Notes under the pieces: model-generated
What the model was told of the DNA's origin: nothing
Database searches by the model: none
What the model saw: the letters and a program-made list of their open reading frames with translations, nothing else
Assembly (NCBI GenBank): GCA_943736015.1
Contig: OX031056.1
Coordinates: 71,699,277-71,763,276, forward strand
DNA from: Tridacna crocea
Lineage: Eukaryota; Mollusca; Bivalvia; Cardiida; Cardiidae
Reading direction: 5' to 3'
Length of the DNA stretch: 64,000 nucleotides
Translations under genes and position numbers: made by a program
Part shown: one piece after another, positions 30,901 to 45,900 of the stretch
Numbering within the stretch: position 1 is the first letter of the stretch
Layout: each line of letters opens with the position of its first letter

Positions 30901-33900
30901 ATTAAGCTGATAAAACAAACTGATTTATAATGAATCATTTGAATAGATTTTCTATGACTAAATTATTTACAGTGATGCCACAGTGGAAAAAATGGTGTTT
31001 ATAGATATGATGCATTCAAGGAGATTTACTGTATTACATCACCAATCATGATCCTCAAAATAAACAAGGGATGCTATATTTGATGAAAATGATACATTAG
31101 AACATAATTTGTGATTTTAAGTGGGGCAAAAAAAATGAGGAAAACTGGAGTTTTTTTTAAGGTTACGGACACTACACATTTTTTGTAGAGTCCGTAACCA
31201 TTAAAGTTGGTTAACCGCTTTGTCTTAGGGGAAAGATGTTGTCGAATGTATTTTCTGAAATCTGTGTAGGTCATGAGTGAATAATGAATTGCTGTGGAGT
31301 ATCTTTAGAGACTTATATCCACTGAATTTTACATGGTTACGGACTCTACTATTTTTCTGAAAAGGCATTTTGTACATTTGAAAAAATCATGAAAATTTTT
31401 GTTTGTTAATAACACTTCCAAATGCTTTTCCATGTTGATCAACCTTATCGTAGTTGTAATTCTATAACAAAAAGTACTTAAAAAAGTTGTATTAAGAAGG
31501 TTTTTTCATCCTATAACAAACAAGAGATATTCAAGATTAAATTTGCATAACATGCTACTACATTTACAGTTTTCGTCATATTTTTCATGTTCTTTAACCA
31601 ATTTTAACAAATCAAACATCAAATTAATCTTTGATAATTTTACTAACTGTTGAATATACCTAATAAGCACTTACCAGAATATTTAACAAGTAGTACAAAT
31701 TGAAAAAAGAGTGAAATTCTAAGTGCAACAACATAACGCCAAAAAAGCACCATTTTGGGGGTATGTTTCATGTTATATCTCGGAGGCCTTTTGATCTTAG
31801 GTGCTCAAATTTTGGCTGAGACTTGAACATACACTAACAAATGATTACAGATAGGTTTCACTGATGTAGGACTGGTGTAAATATAAAATAACTTGACATA
31901 ACAACCAATTTTTTCAAATGATCCCTATATTGTGTCTTACCCGTAAAGAGTTAAATGGCACAACTTTGCCTGTTTTGGCTTGCTTGTAGCAATTTAGAAC
32001 ACTTCATCTCAGTTTTGTCAAGCTGATTGTATTTATGATAGGAAGGCAATCTGAAACTGTAACTATCACCTTTAGCTTGCTGAAAAAAAAACACCTCATC
32101 TCAGATTTATCAACCGGATTGTATTTATGATAGGAAGGCAATCTGAAACTAAATGTCACCGCACTTATCTTTTAATGACTTGTTTAAGAGGACAAGATTG
32201 CAGAGTGTAATGATATTTGAGCTGTCACTTAACACCTGATCTCTTTACCACAAAATCCCAACTATTACCCCTTTCCCAAATAATGATGACTTTTTACGAC
32301 CCTTGGAAAGAAGCCTTTGGAAAACATTGTGGGCAAAAGAAAAAATGCTGGTAACCAGTATTTTCTCCTTTTCCAACAATGTTTTCTACCCTAACAATGA
32401 ACAATTGCACCATTTGAGCCACACTGAAATTGTCATCTGCAAATGCTTTTATTGTCTAAATTACTATAATTATCACAAAGGACTTACTGTTGGCGATTCC
32501 AAACGGCGTCTTCGTTAATTATAGTGTAGTCAGACGTTTGTTGGTATTTTGCTACTGCACTTCTTGAACGTCTCGTGTTGAATAAATTCTCTCTTATCGC
32601 GCGGGAACAGGGGTTCTCCTTAGCGATTCAGGGGCCAGGGGTACTAGGGGTATTTTTAGAAGTTTGGGGAATTCCACAACACTCCCCCCCATTTTATAGA
32701 ATCCGGTGGTCTGCTAGCTGAATCCGATCTTATTCAATAGACTCATCACCTAGTATAATCTGGTGGTCCTGGATGGGACACAATCTCAGATTTGCATATG
32801 AAGAATGCAAGTTACCGTTTCTTTAATCACACAAGGGAAGTCGGCGGTCCAAGTACGAACCAGGCTTCAACTTTGCCCTTCCATATATGGTGGATACAGT
32901 ATCCGGCCGTTACGCTCTGTGTGATGCAAAATTTGGGTTACTGGCTCCTGTCTGATGGAAGCGACCAAATTCGCCACGTCCCCTAGGTACACGGGGGTAT
33001 TAATTTTCTGCCCGGCATGCACTGGTAGATAAGGGGAGTCCGTCTCTATCAAAAGACGCTCGATCGGCACCCGACGAACAGCTTCCCTTTGGGATTTTAT
33101 GAAGCGGGCTACTTTTCCGGTATATCCAAAGTGACAATTTGGAAAGGCTTCACTCCATTTTGTTACTTGATTAAGGCCTCCCGAGAAACAGTGAAGGTGG
33201 ATCCGCTGGTCCCTTGGAACGTGTTTTTTTACAGATTCAAAACAATCTTTAAAGGCTTGTTCCGACATATGTTCCTTCTTGTTTCCTCTGATATGCAACA
33301 CTAACACGTGTCTGGGAGAACACAGGGAAAGAAGCTCCTCAAGTTTGGCCCTTTGTCGTTCCCGGTCAGTGTCACTTTCACTATAATCGAGACCAATTTC
33401 TCCAAAAGCCACTACCCTAGGTTGGAGCAATAAACTTTGCAGATGTTGAAGCCTAGGAGGTGTCAAGTCTTTAAGTTTCTTCGGATGAACACCTACAGAT
33501 ATTCTCCATTTGGGATCCGTCCTGTTAGGTACATGTTTGTATCCAGCCGGATCGCAAAATATCATAACACCCCCCGATAACTCTACTGGAACTCTTGGGG
33601 AAACCTCTGCATGGCGATAAATGGCTGATTCTTCCAATTCAGCATAGTTTAGATTCCAGCAAAGGCGGTCCCAGTGGAAATGGCTATCAAAGGCTTTGTT
33701 CTGGTCGTTTCTGGTATCTCTCAAAGTCCTGGGTTTTACCACCCCAACTGGTGAACTAGTTTTTGGCTTGGACGCACAAACCTCTGCATAAGTCAGGGCC
33801 GTGGTCCCAAGTTGCTCTTTAGTTGGTAGGTTGGTTCTTAAGACTTCAGCGTAGGAAGAGTCACTTTCTACTGTGGTTTTTTCCTCAGTATGGCTCTTTT

Positions 33901-36900
33901 CCATTTCTGCCATTGGCTGTACAGCTGAACTCTCTTCTATCTGGTTTGAGGACATACCTGAACTTTCTACGGAAGCTGGGTCCTCATTTACCTTATCCAC
34001 CAGTTCCATTTGAGTCGATGATGGAGACTTCAATAATGACTCTTCATCCAATGGACTTGATATGGTGGACTTTTGTGGACTTGGGGTACCTTCATAATCC
34101 AACTCTGGACTATTGTCCTTTTCCAGGGTCAGCATCATCTCTGTGGTCAAGTTAAACTTCTGCATCGATAATTGACTTGTGCCGACTTCTTTGGATCCTT
34201 GTTTTAAGCAGACTCGTGCACCCACTTTTGATAGAGATTTATTGTCTTTTGGTTGGGTTCGGTCTGTTTGACTAGTTGGATCTTCTTCTGGAATTGGTGA
34301 AAGTCTTCTACTGAATGTAAGGCTCCCCAGTGGTTTATCTTTTTGTGTGTCTTCTTTGTCTCTCGTAGATGGGCTTTTTTCTCTTCTAGGCACCATGGTT
34401 ATCTCCTGTCTCCTGTGGATGGTCTGAGAAGCATCATCCTCCATTTGACTACCATGTTGCCTTCTTTCTTCCTTCTCCTCTTCTCTTGCTCTTCTTCTCC
34501 TCCTCCTCCTTGAAGGGTTTGGCCTGCAGTATCTACGAGATTTTTTATCTTTTTGTTCCTCTGCGATAGGTACTGTCCACCGTTCGCCAAATAGTTTGAA
34601 AATCTCTTCCCTCTGAGCCGTCGACAGAAGACTTATAATAAAGCTCAATGGACACCAATGAATAAGGGCAGCGGGCGAGTTGACTGGTTCCAGAGAAAAT
34701 GTTCTGGGCCTTCTCCACCTGGACTCCCAAGCTAGTGCTTCCATGGCTTGCTGGGTCTCAGATGTAATGTTCGCATCCGTGATATCTGATTCCTCATTCA
34801 CCAGGTCCATGAGATCATTCACTGTGCCCTCTCTTCCGAACAGGAACCTTGACATCATCTCCAAAGCATGTCGTCTCAGGGATTGGAACTGGGAGTTAGC
34901 CAGTTCAGCGGGGGTCTCTCCGTCGTGAAAGAGTCCTGGGATGTGGACCTGCTGTAAGTGTTGCTTTAGTTTTCCGACAGGCGCTCCACATCCTCTAACT
35001 GGACAGACCTTCCTCTTTGATGGCCGACTTCTTTGATGAGGTGATTCTTCTCTGGTTCTCTTTACCCCTCGTTCGCCACCTACCACTCTTTGATTTCCAG
35101 CTATTGTGATAGCTATATCGGGCACAGACTTGTTTCTCCCTGTGTGGATCTGGGGGCCTCTAAAACGTCTCGTTTCTTTCCCGTCTTGGACGTTCTGGGC
35201 GGATTGGTATGGACGTCTAGGGTACTCGGATCGGTCAGGGCTGTGAGATCTATCCAACTGAGAGCGCCGATTGTAGAAAATCATGGATGAAATTCTCTCA
35301 ACTGAAGATCGTCCGGCTGACCTATCCCGGTCTGTTGTTCGGGATGGCGCTTGATGTCTACTACGGTAGTGTCCGGAACTCCTAGAATTAGGTCTCTGGC
35401 TCCCCCGATGTTCAGGTCTTGACCTAATTTGGGCTCCCGGTTCACTACGATGATACTCAGTTGTCAATATTGGTAGCGTTTGGACTCCGGTCAAAGATTG
35501 TTGACACGGGAAGTCTCTTACTTGTTCGGCAGGTATTGGTAGCACTGGAGCTCCGGTCGATTGGGTTCGACACGCTGAGCCCTCAACACTTCTCTTTTCT
35601 GATCCAGCAACAAGGGTGTCGGTCACAGTTCCCGCTGTACCCGGGGCACCTCCTGCTGCATCTCTCCTGATTACAGGTAGGTCAGGATTGTCTTGCAGAC
35701 GGATATCCTGACACATGACCTGTGTTTCTCCACTGTGGTCCGATAATGGCCGTCTCCTGGGCGCAGACCTAAAATTCCTGCCATAAGGGTTTGGAAGGAA
35801 ACGCAGAACCTCTTCCTCTGACATGGCTACTCCGGCACACTCCCGTTGTAAATCCCGGATATAGTTCTGGTCCCTCCTTTCAATGGCATCTTCATATTGG
35901 CCCCTGACAAGTGCTAAGAACCCCTGTGTGTCCAATCTCTGGGGGGTCGACAGGATCTCATATACCAGCTGCCTGGGATCCCGGACTCCTCTCCTATATG
36001 ATTGGTGACTCATTGCTGAAATAAAAATAATTAGTTCGGTCCGGAATTAAGATCTTTCTCACACACCGGACACGCATACTTATCAAGCTTATTTCCTATT
36101 TCGGGGGTAATGTTTACACAGGGACCATGGTACCACTCTAAACAAAAGTCACATTGAATCATGAACTCGCCACTATCTGGTTGTCTGCATAAACAATACC
36201 TTTGTTCTGCACCGCCAGAGTTTCTTTTTTGTTCAGCAGGGACTCAATTAGTTTGGGATCATTTTTTAGTCTTTTTATCCACTGTGGAAGCGATCTGTCA
36301 GTGCACAATTTGATTCGGTCGTGATTCACCACAAAGTCTTTTTCTTTTACCAGGATTCTAAACAGCGCATTCGAAAATTTTTCCACAATAATGCCTGGTC
36401 CTTTCCAAGGAGCTTTAAGTTTGCTGCTCTTTCCTTTTATCGTTGCAGTGTCCAGAATGTACACCGCATCGCCTACTTGGAATGTCTTCACCAGGATCTT
36501 AGTGTCGTAATCCCGTTTCATGATTTTTTGAGCCGCGCCCAGTTTTTCCCTAGCAACTTTATGTGCGTATTCTATGGATCTTTGTAAATCTGCAACATAT
36601 TGCTCCGGGCTGCCATACTTTTGTAGTCTGATTGGATCTGGATACAGCAAATCCACAGGTTGATTGGTTTCTCTCCCGAGCATCAGCTTATTTGCTGTAA
36701 AACCAGTTTGTCGATTCACACAAGATCTAAGGGCTCCAGCTAGTTGTGGTAAAAATTTGTCCCATGAATTCTGGGAGGACACAAAGCAACGCACCGCATC
36801 CATCAAAGTACGGTTATACCGTTCGACCTGTCCATTAGCGGATGGTCGGTACGGTGTGGTCCTTGATTTGTGGATCTTCAAGAGCTTGCAAACCGCTTGA

Positions 36901-39900: not shown

Positions 39901-42900
39901 AACACCTTGTCTGAAATCAGGGTGACTTGAGCTGCAGTATCGACAACAGCTGACACCTTTACCTTATTCACTATAACAGGAATTGTGTATGTTGGACCAG
40001 AACGCAACTGTAATACAACTGGTTCTTCTTCCCCAGTTTCTTCTTTTTGGATGTCTATCTCCTCTGCAGATAAGACCTGGGTATCCCTATGAGACACCTC
40101 TTTGCCTTTATCTTCACCAGCTGTGATGGTAGATTCAAGGACACACGGTTTAATTTCTTGAGCAGGCGGGGTCATTTGAGATAAGGATTGACTCCACTTT
40201 CCTGTATCGTGATAATTCGTGTAATCATCTTGATTTGTATCTACCCTGGTCTCTTCGTTTAATTGCTCTGCATTGGCTACCCCTTGATTGTCCACAGGCT
40301 TAAATTCTTCGAGTTGATATAGGCCAGTGTAACGATCATTCTGGGTCGGGGGAAGGCCTATTGCTCCGACCCATCTTCGTTTAAAGCCTCCTCTGACTCA
40401 TCACTCTCTTCGTCAAGGAGTGGGTCATACACTGCCGACACTTTCTTGGCCTCATTTTTAATTTCGGCTTTACAGTCTGCTTTCCAGTGACCTTCTTTAC
40501 TGCAATTGAAACATGTTTTATTCCTTATCGGTGAACGTGCTCTCCTTTTCACAGCCATCGTCAGAGTAGCCACTGATTCAGTTAATTGAGTCATTTTCTG
40601 TTCCAATTCGTCCATTCTTTGACTTAATCGGGACTCGGATATCGTTTGTCCCACAGGCTCCTGAAAATGAACCTGTTTTTTGGATTCTCTTTCAGAGTTT
40701 GGAGATGGCCTTGCTGCTCGGATCTCTTGATCGAGATCTGGCTCATAAATGCTTCTTATTTCTTTTCTCGATCTACCGTATACTGCCTGGCTGGTGTGTT
40801 GAAACCATCTAACACGATCAATAGCTTCCTCGATAGATTGGGGCCTTTGGTTGATAGCGTAAAGCCCTGCCTCTTTATCCAAACAGCCTTGGCAGAATCT
40901 TAAAACAGCCTGCTTGTAAATCTGATTGTCAGTCAGGTCAGGATATGCCTGCATTGCCATGTTTACTACCCGGTCACTCCATTCAACCAAGCTTTCTTTT
41001 TGATGTTGGGTAGCATATGTGAAATGCATTTGAATTGTTTCTGGCAGGTCTTTAATATCAAATCTCTTGGCCAGTCTATTCACCACTTCGAAATAATCAA
41101 TATATGGGTCTCTTTCCACCAGACGAGAATAAAATTCACTGGCCTTCCCCTCCAAAATCCATGACAACACATCACGTCTTATTGTGGAATTCCAGCCCTC
41201 CCTGTCCGCATAAGTGGCAAATTTTGTGATAAATGCACGCCAATCTGATTTTCCATCATACGTAATTGACTTTGGGATATTGACGGATTTGGTTCTAAGA
41301 TTCCCAAATACATAAGGATCCCTCAATTCCAACTTCATTGGTGAACGCACTTGGTCAAATGCCTGTGGTCCGACACTGTGAGATGGGAATGACCAACTTG
41401 GACGCACAAATTCATTGATTTGGGTCCCTGGATGCTGCCCATATGCAAGTCCATACCTATGATCCTGCATTATTTTCCTATAATCTCCCCTCTGATCTTG
41501 GCGCCAATCATTTCGACTGTCTGAATATGTGCCCTGCCTGGTCGTATAACTGTACGGAGGGGACTGCACCTGTCTGTTCATGGATCCAGGTAGCTCTATC
41601 TGTGGTTCAGGGCGATAGATACGGTCCAATCGGTCACCTGCCGATGACACAGCCTGTGCTTGCCTTTCATGAATAACCTTCAATGTGTTATCCATGAATT
41701 CTTGAGTTCTATCTAGGTCATGTGTTAAATCAGCTTGTGTTTGAGTAGAACTGGACCAGGTTTGTGAATGTGTGGGGACATAGGGTTGAAAGTCTACTCT
41801 GCTCATGGCTAGAGGCAAATCCCTTATTCCCAGAGTCGAGAATTTTTCAGGTGTTATATTTCCGTACGAGTCTCTTATTGCCAGTATTTTCTCAGCAATT
41901 TTGGTTCCTACACCCGGGATTAGCTCCAGATCCCGTGCTGAACAACAATTGATTTTTATCAACTCCATTGTTCACTTATACTTTGAGGCGTGTGAACGCT
42001 TAAGCGAGGAGTATTAAGTTAAAGTTTTCTATTAAAACTGAAAGACTCTACAAATTTGGAATTTGAGGTCTTATCAATCAGGCGTGGTACTTTTGTACAA
42101 ACAGATATTTCCAGCCTAAGTAATTACTGGGTTATAAGGTTGTATGTCGTGTCCGGTGTATATATAGAAACCCAGAAACACAGCAAACTTTTTTGTTTGT
42201 GGTCTCTTGGCTCTAATATTGATGATTCACATCAAGAGACACAAGTAACTTGAAGTTATGGTCTCTGCTGCCAGCCTGTAACCAAGTATTTTAATTAAAA
42301 TGCACAACAATCTATGGTCAAACACTGATTAAATAGATCTAGTAAGGAAAGGTGAATGGAATTAACCTACCACAATTGCTCAAGTTATCAGGGAAGCTAA
42401 TGTCGAAGTGTTTGAAAGATTTTATTAAATGATTTATTTCTTATTTATTTTTTATTATTTTATTAAAGTTGTGACACAATTTCTGAGTAATATTGTTGTG
42501 TTGATTTGCTAATCCAAACTAAACATCCAAAGAATCTTCAGTGTAACCTCAGAAAGCTATTGAAAAAACTAAATGAATTTATTATTGAATTTATTTTTAT
42601 TATTTTTATTAATTTTTAAAAGTTACTAAGTGGATGAATAAGTACTAAGTTATGGAACTGCCAGTCACTAAATCCAAAGTGTTAAGTATTAATTTGTCTG
42701 AAATATAGCCCCAGGGAAATGAGCTTATCTATTTATTATTTATTTATTATTGACTTTATTATTTAATAAAGTGACCTGTGATTGTCAATTTCTCAATGAT
42801 TTATCTCAGCTAAATTTAATAATACAAGCGAAACTAAAGTGTTTGACCACAAATCTAAATACAATACTGAAGGGCTAGTCAAATAAATTAATTTTCAATT

Positions 42901-45900
42901 GCCAAAAGTCTTAAAAGTTTGGAAAAAACAGTGACAGTGACAAGAAATCGTTTCGATTCAGGCAAAGTCTGTGTACTTCCGTGTTTGTTAGCCGTTTCCG
43001 GTCTCGTGAATTAACGCGCGGGAAAATGCGTCTGCGCAAGTTTCTGCGACGATGCCGGAAATAAATTTCTATCCAAAATGGCGAATTTTGACTTGTTGAG
43101 AATTTTGGAGATATTGACAAAAAATTTCAAAATCGCGATCCGTTAATCGAAAGTCGGTAAAAACGTTTCCGAATCCAAGCGAACGATATCACCCGAATCA
43201 CAATTCAGTAAATCAAGCGAAATCGCGAGCAAAACCGATGAAAACCGTTATCGAAATAATGAAGCGTAGCGAGATCGTATCACTGCCCTACTAAATCGAT
43301 AAGATCTTCGACCCTTAACAATCCTTTACATCAACCTTCTACCGCTAATTCAAGCCGCAACGCGTGTATAAAACGCGTAGGCAGAATATTAATACAAAGG
43401 ACGATTTAGGATCTATCAAAACCTGTCAATGTTTCCAGCCTCGAAGGGACTAACTCCGACTGTTCGACAGCTGGCGACACCAAAAAAGCTTTGGAAGTTC
43501 CCAAGTTTTTGCGATGATTCAATGGTTCAAAAAGCCGACAACGCCAATATTGTCTAAATTACTATAATTATCACAAAGGACTTACTGTTGGCGATTCCAA
43601 ACGGCGTCTTCGTTAATTATAGTGTAGTCAGACGTTTGTTGGTATTTTGCTACTGCACTTCTTGAACGTCTCGTGTTGAATAAATTCTCTCTTATCGCGC
43701 GGGAACAGGGGTTCTCCTTAGCGATTCAGGGGCCAGGGGTACTAGGGGTATTTTTAGAAGTTTGGGGAATTCCACAACACTTTTAATTTTGGAGAGGGCT
43801 AAAATTTTGTCATCTGGTAAAGGGTAAAAGACCCTGAGAAAGAAGCCTATTGAAAACATAATGGGAAAAGGAGAAAATGCTGGTAACCAGCATTTTCTCC
43901 TTTTCCCACAATATTTTCTATCCTTTCAATGTCTGAAATCATCATTTCAACAAGATTTTAATTTGTAGTCTGCAGATGCTTTGGATTTAGTCCATTTCAA
44001 AAATTTGTTCCAATTTCCGTCAGATTAAGCCAATGGATTCACAATGTTTACTAATGATAAAGTAAACATACAATACATGTATCTCAAGATCTAAATCTTT
44101 GGAGATAACAAGTTCAGTGCGTTTCAAATCACCTAACAGTCCTGACTTGTAACAATGTCGGGGAAAAAGGCCTTTGAAATGTTGTTGGAAAAGAAAGGAC
44201 CTTTCTCACTGTTTGAGCATAATTATCTAATTTATCATCTGATAATACTTTCAGTTTGGACCAGTCTAAAATTTTGTAATCTGGTAAAGAGTTTTAAAAA
44301 AATAGGATAATTTTAAGTAATGCTTCCTTTCGCCACAATTTTCAAGTCATCTGCAGTAAGATGAAGTAATTTATGTTTTGAAATATACTAGTAAATGCAT
44401 TTATCTCTTTACTAAATGACGTGGGGTATGGACAAAAGCCCACCAGGTGAAAAGCCCACTGGACAAAAGCCCACTAGGTAAAAGGCCCACCAGGTGAAAA
44501 GCCCACTCATACTTAACTCATTACCAAACAACAGAATTCTAGGTTTGTCCAAATCGAAAGCATTAGCCGAGAACAAAATAAAAGTGACTGAAAATTTGAA
44601 GTTTTTTTTGTGAAGGGTAGAAAACATTTTGGGAAAAGGAGAAAATGCTGTTTACCAGCATTTTCTCCTTTTTCCACAAGGTTTTCTAGAGGCCTACTAG
44701 CATTTTCTCCTTTTCTTACAATGATTTTAACATACCTAAAACTTGGGATTGTGCGATAAAGACTTAACTGTTTACCTGACAACAAAATTTTAGACTGGTC
44801 CAAATTGAAAGCACTTGGAGATAACAATTTAAACATAACTAAAGAATTTAAATTTGTTTCTAGCAGGGTAGAAAATATTGTGGGAAAAGAAAAAAATGCT
44901 GCTTACCAGCATTTTATCCTTTTTCCACAATATTTTCCAAAGGCTTTTATTTCAGGGTCATGAAAAAACAGGGATTGTTTGGTAAACTGTTAAATAACCT
45001 TCAATTCTTCATTTTCAGGAAAAATCTATCAAGTCTACAGTTGTGAAAATTGCTGGGTCCATCCCAGCAGGAAACTACATCCAGATGCCGAAAACCACAT
45101 CCCAGTCTTTGGGCCTGACCGGGCGCTACATGTACCTCCTTATCAAACCCATACCCACCAAATACTTTGTGGTACATATTGATGTGGCAACACAGGACAA
45201 CCTGGTTGTGAGGATATCTTTCTCAAATCTGTTCAAGGAGTTCAAATCTACCTCTACGTGGCTACAGTTTCCGTTCATTTGCAAAGCCACAAGAGGGTCT
45301 ATTCATGCTGCTACGGCAAGTACTGGTAAAGGTAAGTGTTTGCCTTTTACCTAGGCGGGCCTCCAATTGTTCATCTTTTCCTTTACTATCATTGGGATGA
45401 TTTCAAAAAGTTTCTTCCTTTGACTCCTGAAAACTTGGAATTGATTGGCAAAGGGTTCATTGAACTATTTTTATCTCTCTCTGAATGCGGGGAGATACTA
45501 GTATATAGATAGTTCTAGTGTCATCGATCAATTTGTCTGTACGTCTGTCCGTCCTGGTTAACAGATATCTTCAACAATCCTGAATGAAAATTGATGAAAT
45601 TTATACATATGTTGCTTACGACAGTCTCGCAATATTTTACTTTTGTTTTTCACCTTTAATGCTGTGTAATGGAAAAAAGGGGTTTAATGTGTAGTTTTAT
45701 TTTTGGACCACTTTTACATGTTTTTACATGCAAGACACAAAATGTCTACTTTCTATCAAAAAAGTCTTTTCTTTGCAGTGGATATCATTTCAATGAAATG
45801 ATTTTTTTTTTATTATATACTAGTACATTTTCAGGCTCCAGTACATGCATTGAAACTGGATGAAATAACACACATGACAGAAAAAAATTATTTATCTAGA

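What the first reader, a model, noticed from the sequence alone, without database searches (positions are those of the whole stretch)
32867..36013. TatD-type nuclease encoded in the env position of a Ty3/gypsy retrotransposon
The third ORF ends in a complete TatD-like domain (residues 776-1048). All six expected metal ligands are visible: H778, H780, E872, H907, H941, D992. It also has a zinc finger (C337, C342, H352, H357) and an Arg-rich tract, and no membrane segment. The intact frame, in an element with identical LTRs, argues for function. A 3'-5' nuclease acting on DNA ends, RNA-DNA hybrids or competing host DNA could help cDNA processing or integration, or counter host defence. That role is inference. 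TATDN2 of animals is the likely cellular relative.
Basis: partly seen in the sequence, partly recalled or inferred. Interest (0 to 1): 0.93.

Follow-up and report, generated by a model that had tools for sequence, protein, structure and literature searches.

The report
Retrotransposon with its own TatD nuclease
A jumping gene in an animal (probably mollusc) genome carries, where related viruses keep their coat gene, a gene for a DNA/RNA-cutting enzyme whose active site its relatives in molluscs and echinoderms have kept, so the enzyme probably helps this lineage of jumping genes to live in its hosts.

Summary
Confirmed. ORF3 (32867-36013, minus, 1048 aa) of an 11.3-kb Ty3/gypsy element with identical LTRs ends in a TatD nuclease domain (PF01026, E 7.7e-36). 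It is no one-off insertion. Of 66 scored integrase copies at least 47% identical to this one, 62 have TatD sequence downstream (34 spanning 200 or more residues); of 50 at 42% or less, none. The zinc-finger-plus-TatD pair recurs in 109 of 249 listed database proteins, named ones mostly from molluscs and echinoderms; all six metal ligands are kept in 101 of 104. Between families TatD shows purifying selection. In trees these TatDs form one clade, sister to cellular TATDN2-like proteins, which include the host's own five-exon gene: old acquisition, not recent capture. A splice-acceptor-like tract precedes ORF3 in four families. One family has multiplied ORF3-deleted copies, so ORF3 seems not needed in cis. 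Best reading: a trans-acting, probably nuclear, TATDN2-like nuclease; substrate untested. Precedents: DEDDy-exonuclease ORF3s of bdelloid rotifers, AlkB in orchid Gypsy. Ten literature searches found no TatD retrotransposon.

The parts
32446..32450 (.). target-site duplication AAAAG (boundary ambiguous by 1 base)
   Evidence: read from the flanks
32451..32681 (-). 3' LTR
   Evidence: 100% identical to 5' LTR (234-base match), trimmed by eye
32682..32695 (-). polypurine tract
32867..36013 (-). ORF3, 1048 aa, zinc finger-helical domain plus TatD nuclease
32867..33700 (-). TatD nuclease domain, residues 772-1048 with H778, H780, E872, H907, H941, D992
   Evidence: PF01026 E 7.7e-36; ligands in 101 of 104 covering homologues
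34490..34510 (-). arginine tract, residues 502-508
34619..35020 (-). conserved zinc finger-helical domain (residues 332-465), C337 C342 H352 H357; no Pfam family or PDB relative found for it
36016..36034 (-). splice-acceptor-like tract ending 2 bases before the ORF3 ATG
   Evidence: inference
36055..36195 (-). PHD finger reading frame, out of frame with pol in this copy, in frame in copy L010
   Evidence: PF00628 E 4.8e-9 in L010 and L030
36159..40295 (-). pol: protease, RT, RNase H, integrase
40358..41968 (-). gag, 536 aa, N-terminal helix-hairpin-helix and CCHC knuckle
43529..43546 (-). candidate primer-binding site (starts TGGCGTTGTCGGC); tRNA not identified
   Evidence: inference
43549..43779 (-). 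5' LTR
43780..43784 (.). target-site duplication AAAAG

Best explanation
ORF3 is a genuine, anciently acquired accessory gene of one Ty3/gypsy lineage: a C2H2-finger protein with a C-terminal TATDN2-like two-metal nuclease. SHOWN from sequence: homology, metal ligands, purifying selection between families, one clade, linkage to one pol lineage, existence of multiplied ORF3-deleted copies. INFERRED: it is made from a spliced subgenomic RNA, as env is, because an acceptor-like tract sits at its start codon; it goes to the nucleus (finger, basic tracts, no membrane segment); it acts in trans, since copies without ORF3 multiplied beside intact ones; its substrate is RNA, or RNA in RNA-DNA hybrids, as reported for TATDN2, rather than integrating DNA ends. 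Its likely benefit is to clear hybrids or to degrade host guide or silencing RNA at element loci. My odds: active metal nuclease 0.85; trans-acting accessory 0.6; RNA/hybrid substrate 0.5; counter-defence benefit 0.35.
For: PF01026 E 7.7e-36. Six ligands in 101 of 104 covering proteins; finger ligands 99 of 99, 99 of 99, 103 of 104, 104 of 105. Linkage: 62 of 66 close integrase copies have TatD downstream, 0 of 50 distant ones; 18 of 20 fetched TatD loci have pol upstream on the same strand. Profile check of five distant-pol loci: no TatD (best E 0.062), against E 1.5e-27 or better in four positive loci. Between families pS 0.73-0.83, pN 0.37-0.49. 23 of 35 near-complete TatD matches lie in stop-free frames of 650 aa or more. 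Other species: Acanthaster P0024 (integrase-PHD-finger-TatD) and Mytilus P0028 (protease plus finger-TatD), each one predicted protein. Tree: element-type clade 100/97, with TATDN2-like proteins 100/99 against bacteria; the host's own gene falls with the cellular group, 98/98. Acceptor-like tract at 11 of 16 examined loci, four families. TATDN2 as RNA exo/endonuclease resolving R-loops: PMC12709183, introduction.
Against: The acceptor ranks only 5th of 378 YAG sites in the element, and no donor stands out; F5, L019 and two F1 copies miss it. Within family F3, pairs of copies give dN/dS 0.37, 0.60 and 4.9 on few changes, as decaying copies would. ORF3-deleted copies outnumber intact ones in family F6 (21 against at least 7), which fits trans-supply but also plain dispensability. 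TatD enzymes also cut DNA and abasic sites (PMC10085689, passages), so an RNA substrate is analogy. In the larger quick tree the split between element-type rows and the rest has support of only 76 with P0060 and 91 without it; P0060 and P0068 were not in the careful trees.
Confidence: 0.5

Rival explanations
1. ORF3 is a DNA 3' end or abasic-site nuclease that processes element cDNA or helps repair after integration, acting on the element's own cDNA.
For: TATDN1, TATDN3 and the E. coli paralogues have AP endonuclease and 3' exonuclease activity on DNA (passages of PMC10085689); the element also carries a PHD finger on integrase.
Against: About 21 copies lacking most of ORF3 exist, 11 of them with an open 1580-aa frame at integrase, so it seems not needed in cis; the nearest cellular kin is TATDN2-like, reported as RNA-acting.
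Confidence: 0.25
2. ORF3 is an accessory for transfer between cells or hosts, like env, and is shed once copies move only inside the germ line; the nuclease frees particles from host nucleic acid or blunts innate sensing in a new cell.
For: env position; F6 loses ORF3 and spreads, like env-less superspreader retroviruses (a title in the reference list of PMC5408684); the lineage occurs in two phyla.
Against: No membrane or fusion segment. No test of horizontal transfer was made.
Confidence: 0.15
3. ORF3 is a passenger with no function.
For: Deleted in many F6 copies.
Against: Six ligands kept in 101 of 104; saturated synonymous but not non-synonymous change; open frames in several families.
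Confidence: 0.05

Closest known systems
Bdelloid rotifer LTR retrotransposons Juno and Vesta with DEDDy-type exonuclease ORF3 (PMC5408684; passages seen)
   Same: An extra nuclease ORF after pol, in env position; ORF3s stated to be expressed from spliced messages; ORF3 more like other elements' ORF3 than like cellular genes.
   Different: Another fold and family (RNase D-like, not TatD); at least two separate acquisitions there, one clade here; here paired with a zinc-finger domain and found in molluscs and echinoderms.
Phalaenopsis Gypsy elements with an AlkB-like m6A demethylase ORF (PMC9289625; abstract, outline and passages)
   Same: Extra ORF with a nucleic-acid enzyme in a Ty3/gypsy lineage; proposed role against host surveillance.
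   Different: Demethylase, plant, recent acquisition, activity shown in vitro.
Cellular TATDN2 (PMC12709183 introduction; PMC10085689 passages)
   Same: Class II HxH TatD with a long N-terminal extension; TATDN2-like proteins are the sister group in the tree.
   Different: The seven cellular TATDN2-like proteins in my tree lack the ORF3 zinc-finger domain (7 of 7) and form their own clade.
Chromoviruses (chromodomain at the end of pol; passage in PMC12440569)
   Same: A possible chromatin-reading module at the end of pol (here a PHD finger).
   Different: PHD instead of chromodomain; extra nuclease ORF.

Membership tests
TatD DNase family (PF01026) | Significant profile match | tested here: met
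   E 7.7e-36, 124 bits against cut-off 27
TatD DNase family (PF01026) | Metal ligands HxH, E, H, H, D | tested here: met
TatD DNase family (PF01026) | TIM-barrel fold | not testable with these tools
   structure prediction job failed, then tool switched off
TatD DNase family (PF01026) | Nuclease activity | not testable with these tools
   needs protein
Cellular TATDN2 clade | Class II HxH motif and long N-terminal extension | tested here: met
   definition
Cellular TATDN2 clade | Falls inside the cellular clade in a tree | tested here: not met
   separate sister clade, 100/97 and 100/98; vertebrate TATDN1, TATDN2 and TATDN3 were not in the tree
Ty3/gypsy LTR retrotransposon | LTRs, TSD, PBS, PPT | tested here: met
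   (PBS only a candidate)
Ty3/gypsy LTR retrotransposon | PR-RT-RNase H-IN order | tested here: met
Ty3/gypsy LTR retrotransposon | Named clade by RT phylogeny | not tested
   no reference RT set fetched
Errantivirus-like env | Membrane-anchored fusion glycoprotein | tested here: not met
   no 19-residue segment above 1.61; Pfam finds TatD only
Bdelloid Juno/Vesta type exonuclease ORF3 | DEDDy exonuclease domain | tested here: not met

The most novel reading that the evidence does not exclude
A whole lineage of animal Ty3/gypsy elements carries a zinc-finger-guided RNA/R-loop nuclease, supplied in trans from a spliced env-like message, that disarms RNA-based host silencing; ORF3-less copies cheat on it, and sea urchins have turned one such nuclease (with one metal ligand changed) into a host gene now annotated as TATDN2.
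Probability: 0.25. Interest if true: 0.92.

Novelty: new variant of a known kind. Interest (0 to 1): 0.8.

Why it matters
Extra enzyme domains in LTR retrotransposons are considered rare (abstract of PMC9289625). Here a nuclease, a zinc-finger domain without a Pfam family and a pol PHD finger mark a retroelement lineage found in two phyla, with natural deletion copies in the same genome. That makes testable what elements gain from a private nuclease. It also warns that some invertebrate genes named TATDN2 or TatD are retroelement-type ORFs, which bears on gene-family counts and on TATDN trees.

Tried and rejected
PF01026 scan of the whole genome: asked eight times, never answered. Viral contigs: seven TatD loci (L032-L038), 27-32% identical over the common domain; taken as ordinary phage or bacterial TatD, not examined further. 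PDB search with the zinc-finger domain: no credible match, best E 0.28. PDB search with the cellular TATDN2-like P0122 listed no TATDN2 chain. Splice donor scan: no clear donor. One-off insertion, env and passenger readings rejected as above. A PHD-finger paper lead (PMC3286476) was only a neighbouring host gene.

Limits: only the best 116 of 2408 integrase candidates were scored, so the 0-of-50 contrast concerns a sample; of the 50, five were checked with profiles. 50 of 117 TatD matches were not downstream of a listed integrase match; these include fragments, an exon of the host gene and copies whose integrase was not scored. Of the 21 ORF3-deleted copies two were read (L030, L031); the other 19 are inferred from the same spacing and match. 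One search listed 120 of 5552 hits. Of 249 proteins plus own loci, 155 rows went towards the first tree (rows with a short TatD match and four in five of the rows after P0153 were left out) and 22 near-duplicates were then dropped, leaving 133; the careful trees used 64 and 58 rows that I chose from those.
Full report
WHAT IS THERE. The minus strand of the window holds an element of about 11.3 kb with identical LTRs and target-site duplication AAAAG. In order: gag (536 aa, CCHC knuckle, N-terminal helix-hairpin-helix PF12836 E 2.5e-6), pol (1378 aa, protease-RT-RNase H-integrase) and ORF3 (1048 aa). ORF3 matches one Pfam family, TatD_DNase, E 7.7e-36. Pol of this copy stops at 36159; directly there, in another frame, lies a PHD finger that copy L010, and L030 of another family, read in frame with integrase (PF00628 E 4.8e-9 in both). 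So this copy's pol is frame-shifted near its end; ORF3 is intact.

IT IS A FIXED PART OF A LINEAGE. The genome (1.05 Gb, 31 contigs, unnamed) has 117 matches to the TatD domain: two further copies at 100% with the full 1059-aa stop-to-stop frame, decayed copies at 95% and 93%, families mostly at 37-50%, and fragments. Of 20 TatD loci fetched at 10 kb, 18 have pol upstream on the same strand; in L016 the pol found is on the other strand and in L018 none is found. All 20 match ORF3 ahead of TatD, 18 of them across the finger itself. Nucleotide comparison groups them into families with members about 93-99.7% identical. Starting from pol, 116 integrase copies were scored (the best of 2408 candidates). 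Of 66 at 47% identity or more, 62 have TatD downstream within 6.5 kb on the same strand: 34 with a span of 200 residues or more, 5 partial, 23 short; 4 have none. Of 50 at 42% or less, none has. To check that this is not lost sensitivity, 4.5 kb downstream of five of those 50 was searched with profiles: best TatD E 0.062, against 1.5e-27 or better for four positive loci. Pol and TatD identities between families run broadly in parallel, with one mild disagreement: family F4 (L021) is nearest to the window by pol (62%) but not by TatD (41%).

IT IS KEPT BY SELECTION. Between families, TatD pS is 0.73-0.83 (saturated) and pN 0.37-0.49; the zinc-finger region shows pS 0.67-0.89 and pN 0.43-0.58. 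Copies inside family F3 give ratios of 0.37, 0.60 and 4.9 on few changes, as decaying copies would; one F4 pair gives 0.13. Of 35 matches spanning 255 residues or more, 31 have no stop in the match and 23 lie in stop-free frames of at least 650 aa.

RELATIVES ELSEWHERE. Three protein searches (the last listed 120 of 5552 hits) gave 249 proteins; 109 match the ORF3 zinc-finger profile at E 0.001 or better, and all 249 the TatD profile. Named sources of finger-TatD proteins are mainly molluscs (Dreissena, Mytilus, Saccostrea, Ruditapes, Argopecten, Pecten, Pinctada, Crassostrea, Elysia, Haliotis) and echinoderms (Diadema, Lytechinus, Strongylocentrotus, Acanthaster). Element context shows in Acanthaster P0024 (integrase, PHD, finger, TatD), Mytilus P0028 (protease, finger, TatD) and unnamed P0071 (PHD, finger, TatD); for the others no context was available. 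All six metal ligands are kept in 101 of 104 finger-TatD proteins that cover them; exceptions P0041, P0042 (H907Y) and P0070 (D992A). Zinc ligands: 99 of 99, 99 of 99, 103 of 104, 104 of 105. The zinc-finger/helical domain found no Pfam family of its own (one of 50 members matches a C2H2 model) and no PDB relative.

ORIGIN. A careful tree of 64 chosen rows gives three groups: element-type TatDs (46 rows, 100/97), cellular TATDN2-like proteins (7 rows, 100/98) and bacterial TatDs (11 rows, 100/99), with the first two together at 100/99 against bacteria. In the larger quick tree of 133 rows the same split appears with support 76, or 91 when the long-branched P0060 is set aside. A search with a bryozoan TATDN2-like protein found the host's own gene: five exons in order over 7.8 kb of contig C7. 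Its TatD domain falls with the cellular group (8 rows, 98/98), not with the element-type rows (39 rows, 100/98). So the element did not capture the host's gene recently; one old acquisition from the TATDN2 stem fits best. Vertebrate TATDN1-3 were not available for the tree, and 'TATDN2-like' for the seven rows rests partly on recalled motifs.

EXPRESSION. A tract ending in CAG lies two bases before the ORF3 ATG. Of 19 loci tried, the PHD motif was found in 16; with a simple rule, 11 of these 16 have such a site before ORF3, in families F1, F3, F4 and F6; F5 (two loci), L019, and L009 and L012 of F1 do not. In the window element it ranks fifth of 378 YAG sites, and no donor stands out. Splicing is therefore a fair inference, not shown; spliced ORF3 messages are stated for LTR retrotransposons in PMC5408684 (passage).

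A NATURAL DELETION EXPERIMENT. In family F6, at least 7 copies carry a near-complete TatD (L029 was read: ORF3 frame 702 aa), and 21 have only a short TatD match 712-785 bases behind integrase. Two of the 21 were read: most of ORF3 is gone and the stretch left matches ORF3 residues about 895-987, without HxH, E872 or D992. L030 and L031 are 98.5% identical over 1972 bases. 11 of the 21 have their integrase match in an open frame of 1580 aa without stops. The integrase-PHD parts of L029 and L030 are nearly identical (31 differences in 1428 bases, 12 of them in the last 78), whereas the longer pieces beyond are 83-88% identical, which suggests recombination, hence co-packaging, between the two kinds. 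ORF3 thus seems not needed in cis. It may act in trans, or be needed only for something other than copying inside the genome.

MECHANISM. I think ORF3 is a trans-acting nuclear nuclease. [quoted passage not shown] TATDN1 and TATDN3 cut DNA and abasic sites (PMC10085689, passages). By kinship I favour RNA or hybrid substrates, at about even odds. Whether the gain is hybrid clearance or counter-defence cannot be told from sequence.

WHAT IS KNOWN. Ten literature searches were made with TatD or TATDN2 combined with retrotransposon, Gypsy, retroelement, transposable element, transpos, reverse transcriptase, integrase and others, and with PHD finger or additional ORF. As far as titles, abstract openings and passages show, none of the listed papers describes a TatD ORF in a retrotransposon; several listings were capped, and the library lacks most subscription journals. 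Kin phenomena are the DEDDy and GDSL ORF3s of bdelloids and the AlkB ORF of orchid Gypsy. Three other papers on LTR elements do not contain the word TatD in their main text: PMC12440569, PMC6238403, PMC8556966. I therefore rate it a new variant of a known kind: accessory enzyme ORFs in LTR retrotransposons, with an enzyme family and domain pairing not seen in what I searched.

Noticed in passing
P0051, P0052, P0054 (Lytechinus, named TATDN2): P0051 sits inside the element-type TatD clade; all three lack the zinc finger and have metal ligand H941 changed to Q; TatD is 97% identical between two species. Possibly a domesticated retroelement nuclease.
   Followed up: partly
L042 (2466-3632 minus), L043 (1274-2671 plus): Two distant-pol elements of the same genome carry another env-position ORF: C2H2-like fingers with a basic tail, no TatD. 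A finger-only ORF3 may be the older state.
   Followed up: partly
window 36055-36195 and pol ends of other copies: PHD finger behind integrase in F1, F3, F4, F5, F6 and L019 by motif, confirmed by Pfam in L010 and L030; a possible counterpart of the chromodomain.
   Followed up: partly
window 41855-41962: Helix-hairpin-helix motif at the N terminus of Gag; the same Gag end is matched in families F4 and F5.
   Followed up: no
P0002, P0005, P0006, P0008, P0010, P0083, P0105: These ORFs are filed under bacterial MAGs (Sedimenticola, Thiodiazotropha), probably host DNA in symbiont bins.
   Followed up: no
G000:C5:464634-485602: Three TatD fragments (residues 178-269 of the query) spaced about 10 kb apart, a possible tandem array.
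   Followed up: no
giant squid genome paper PMC6962438: A TATDN2 gene is named in the Hox cluster figure legend among non-Hox genes; it may be such a retroelement ORF (passage).
   Followed up: no
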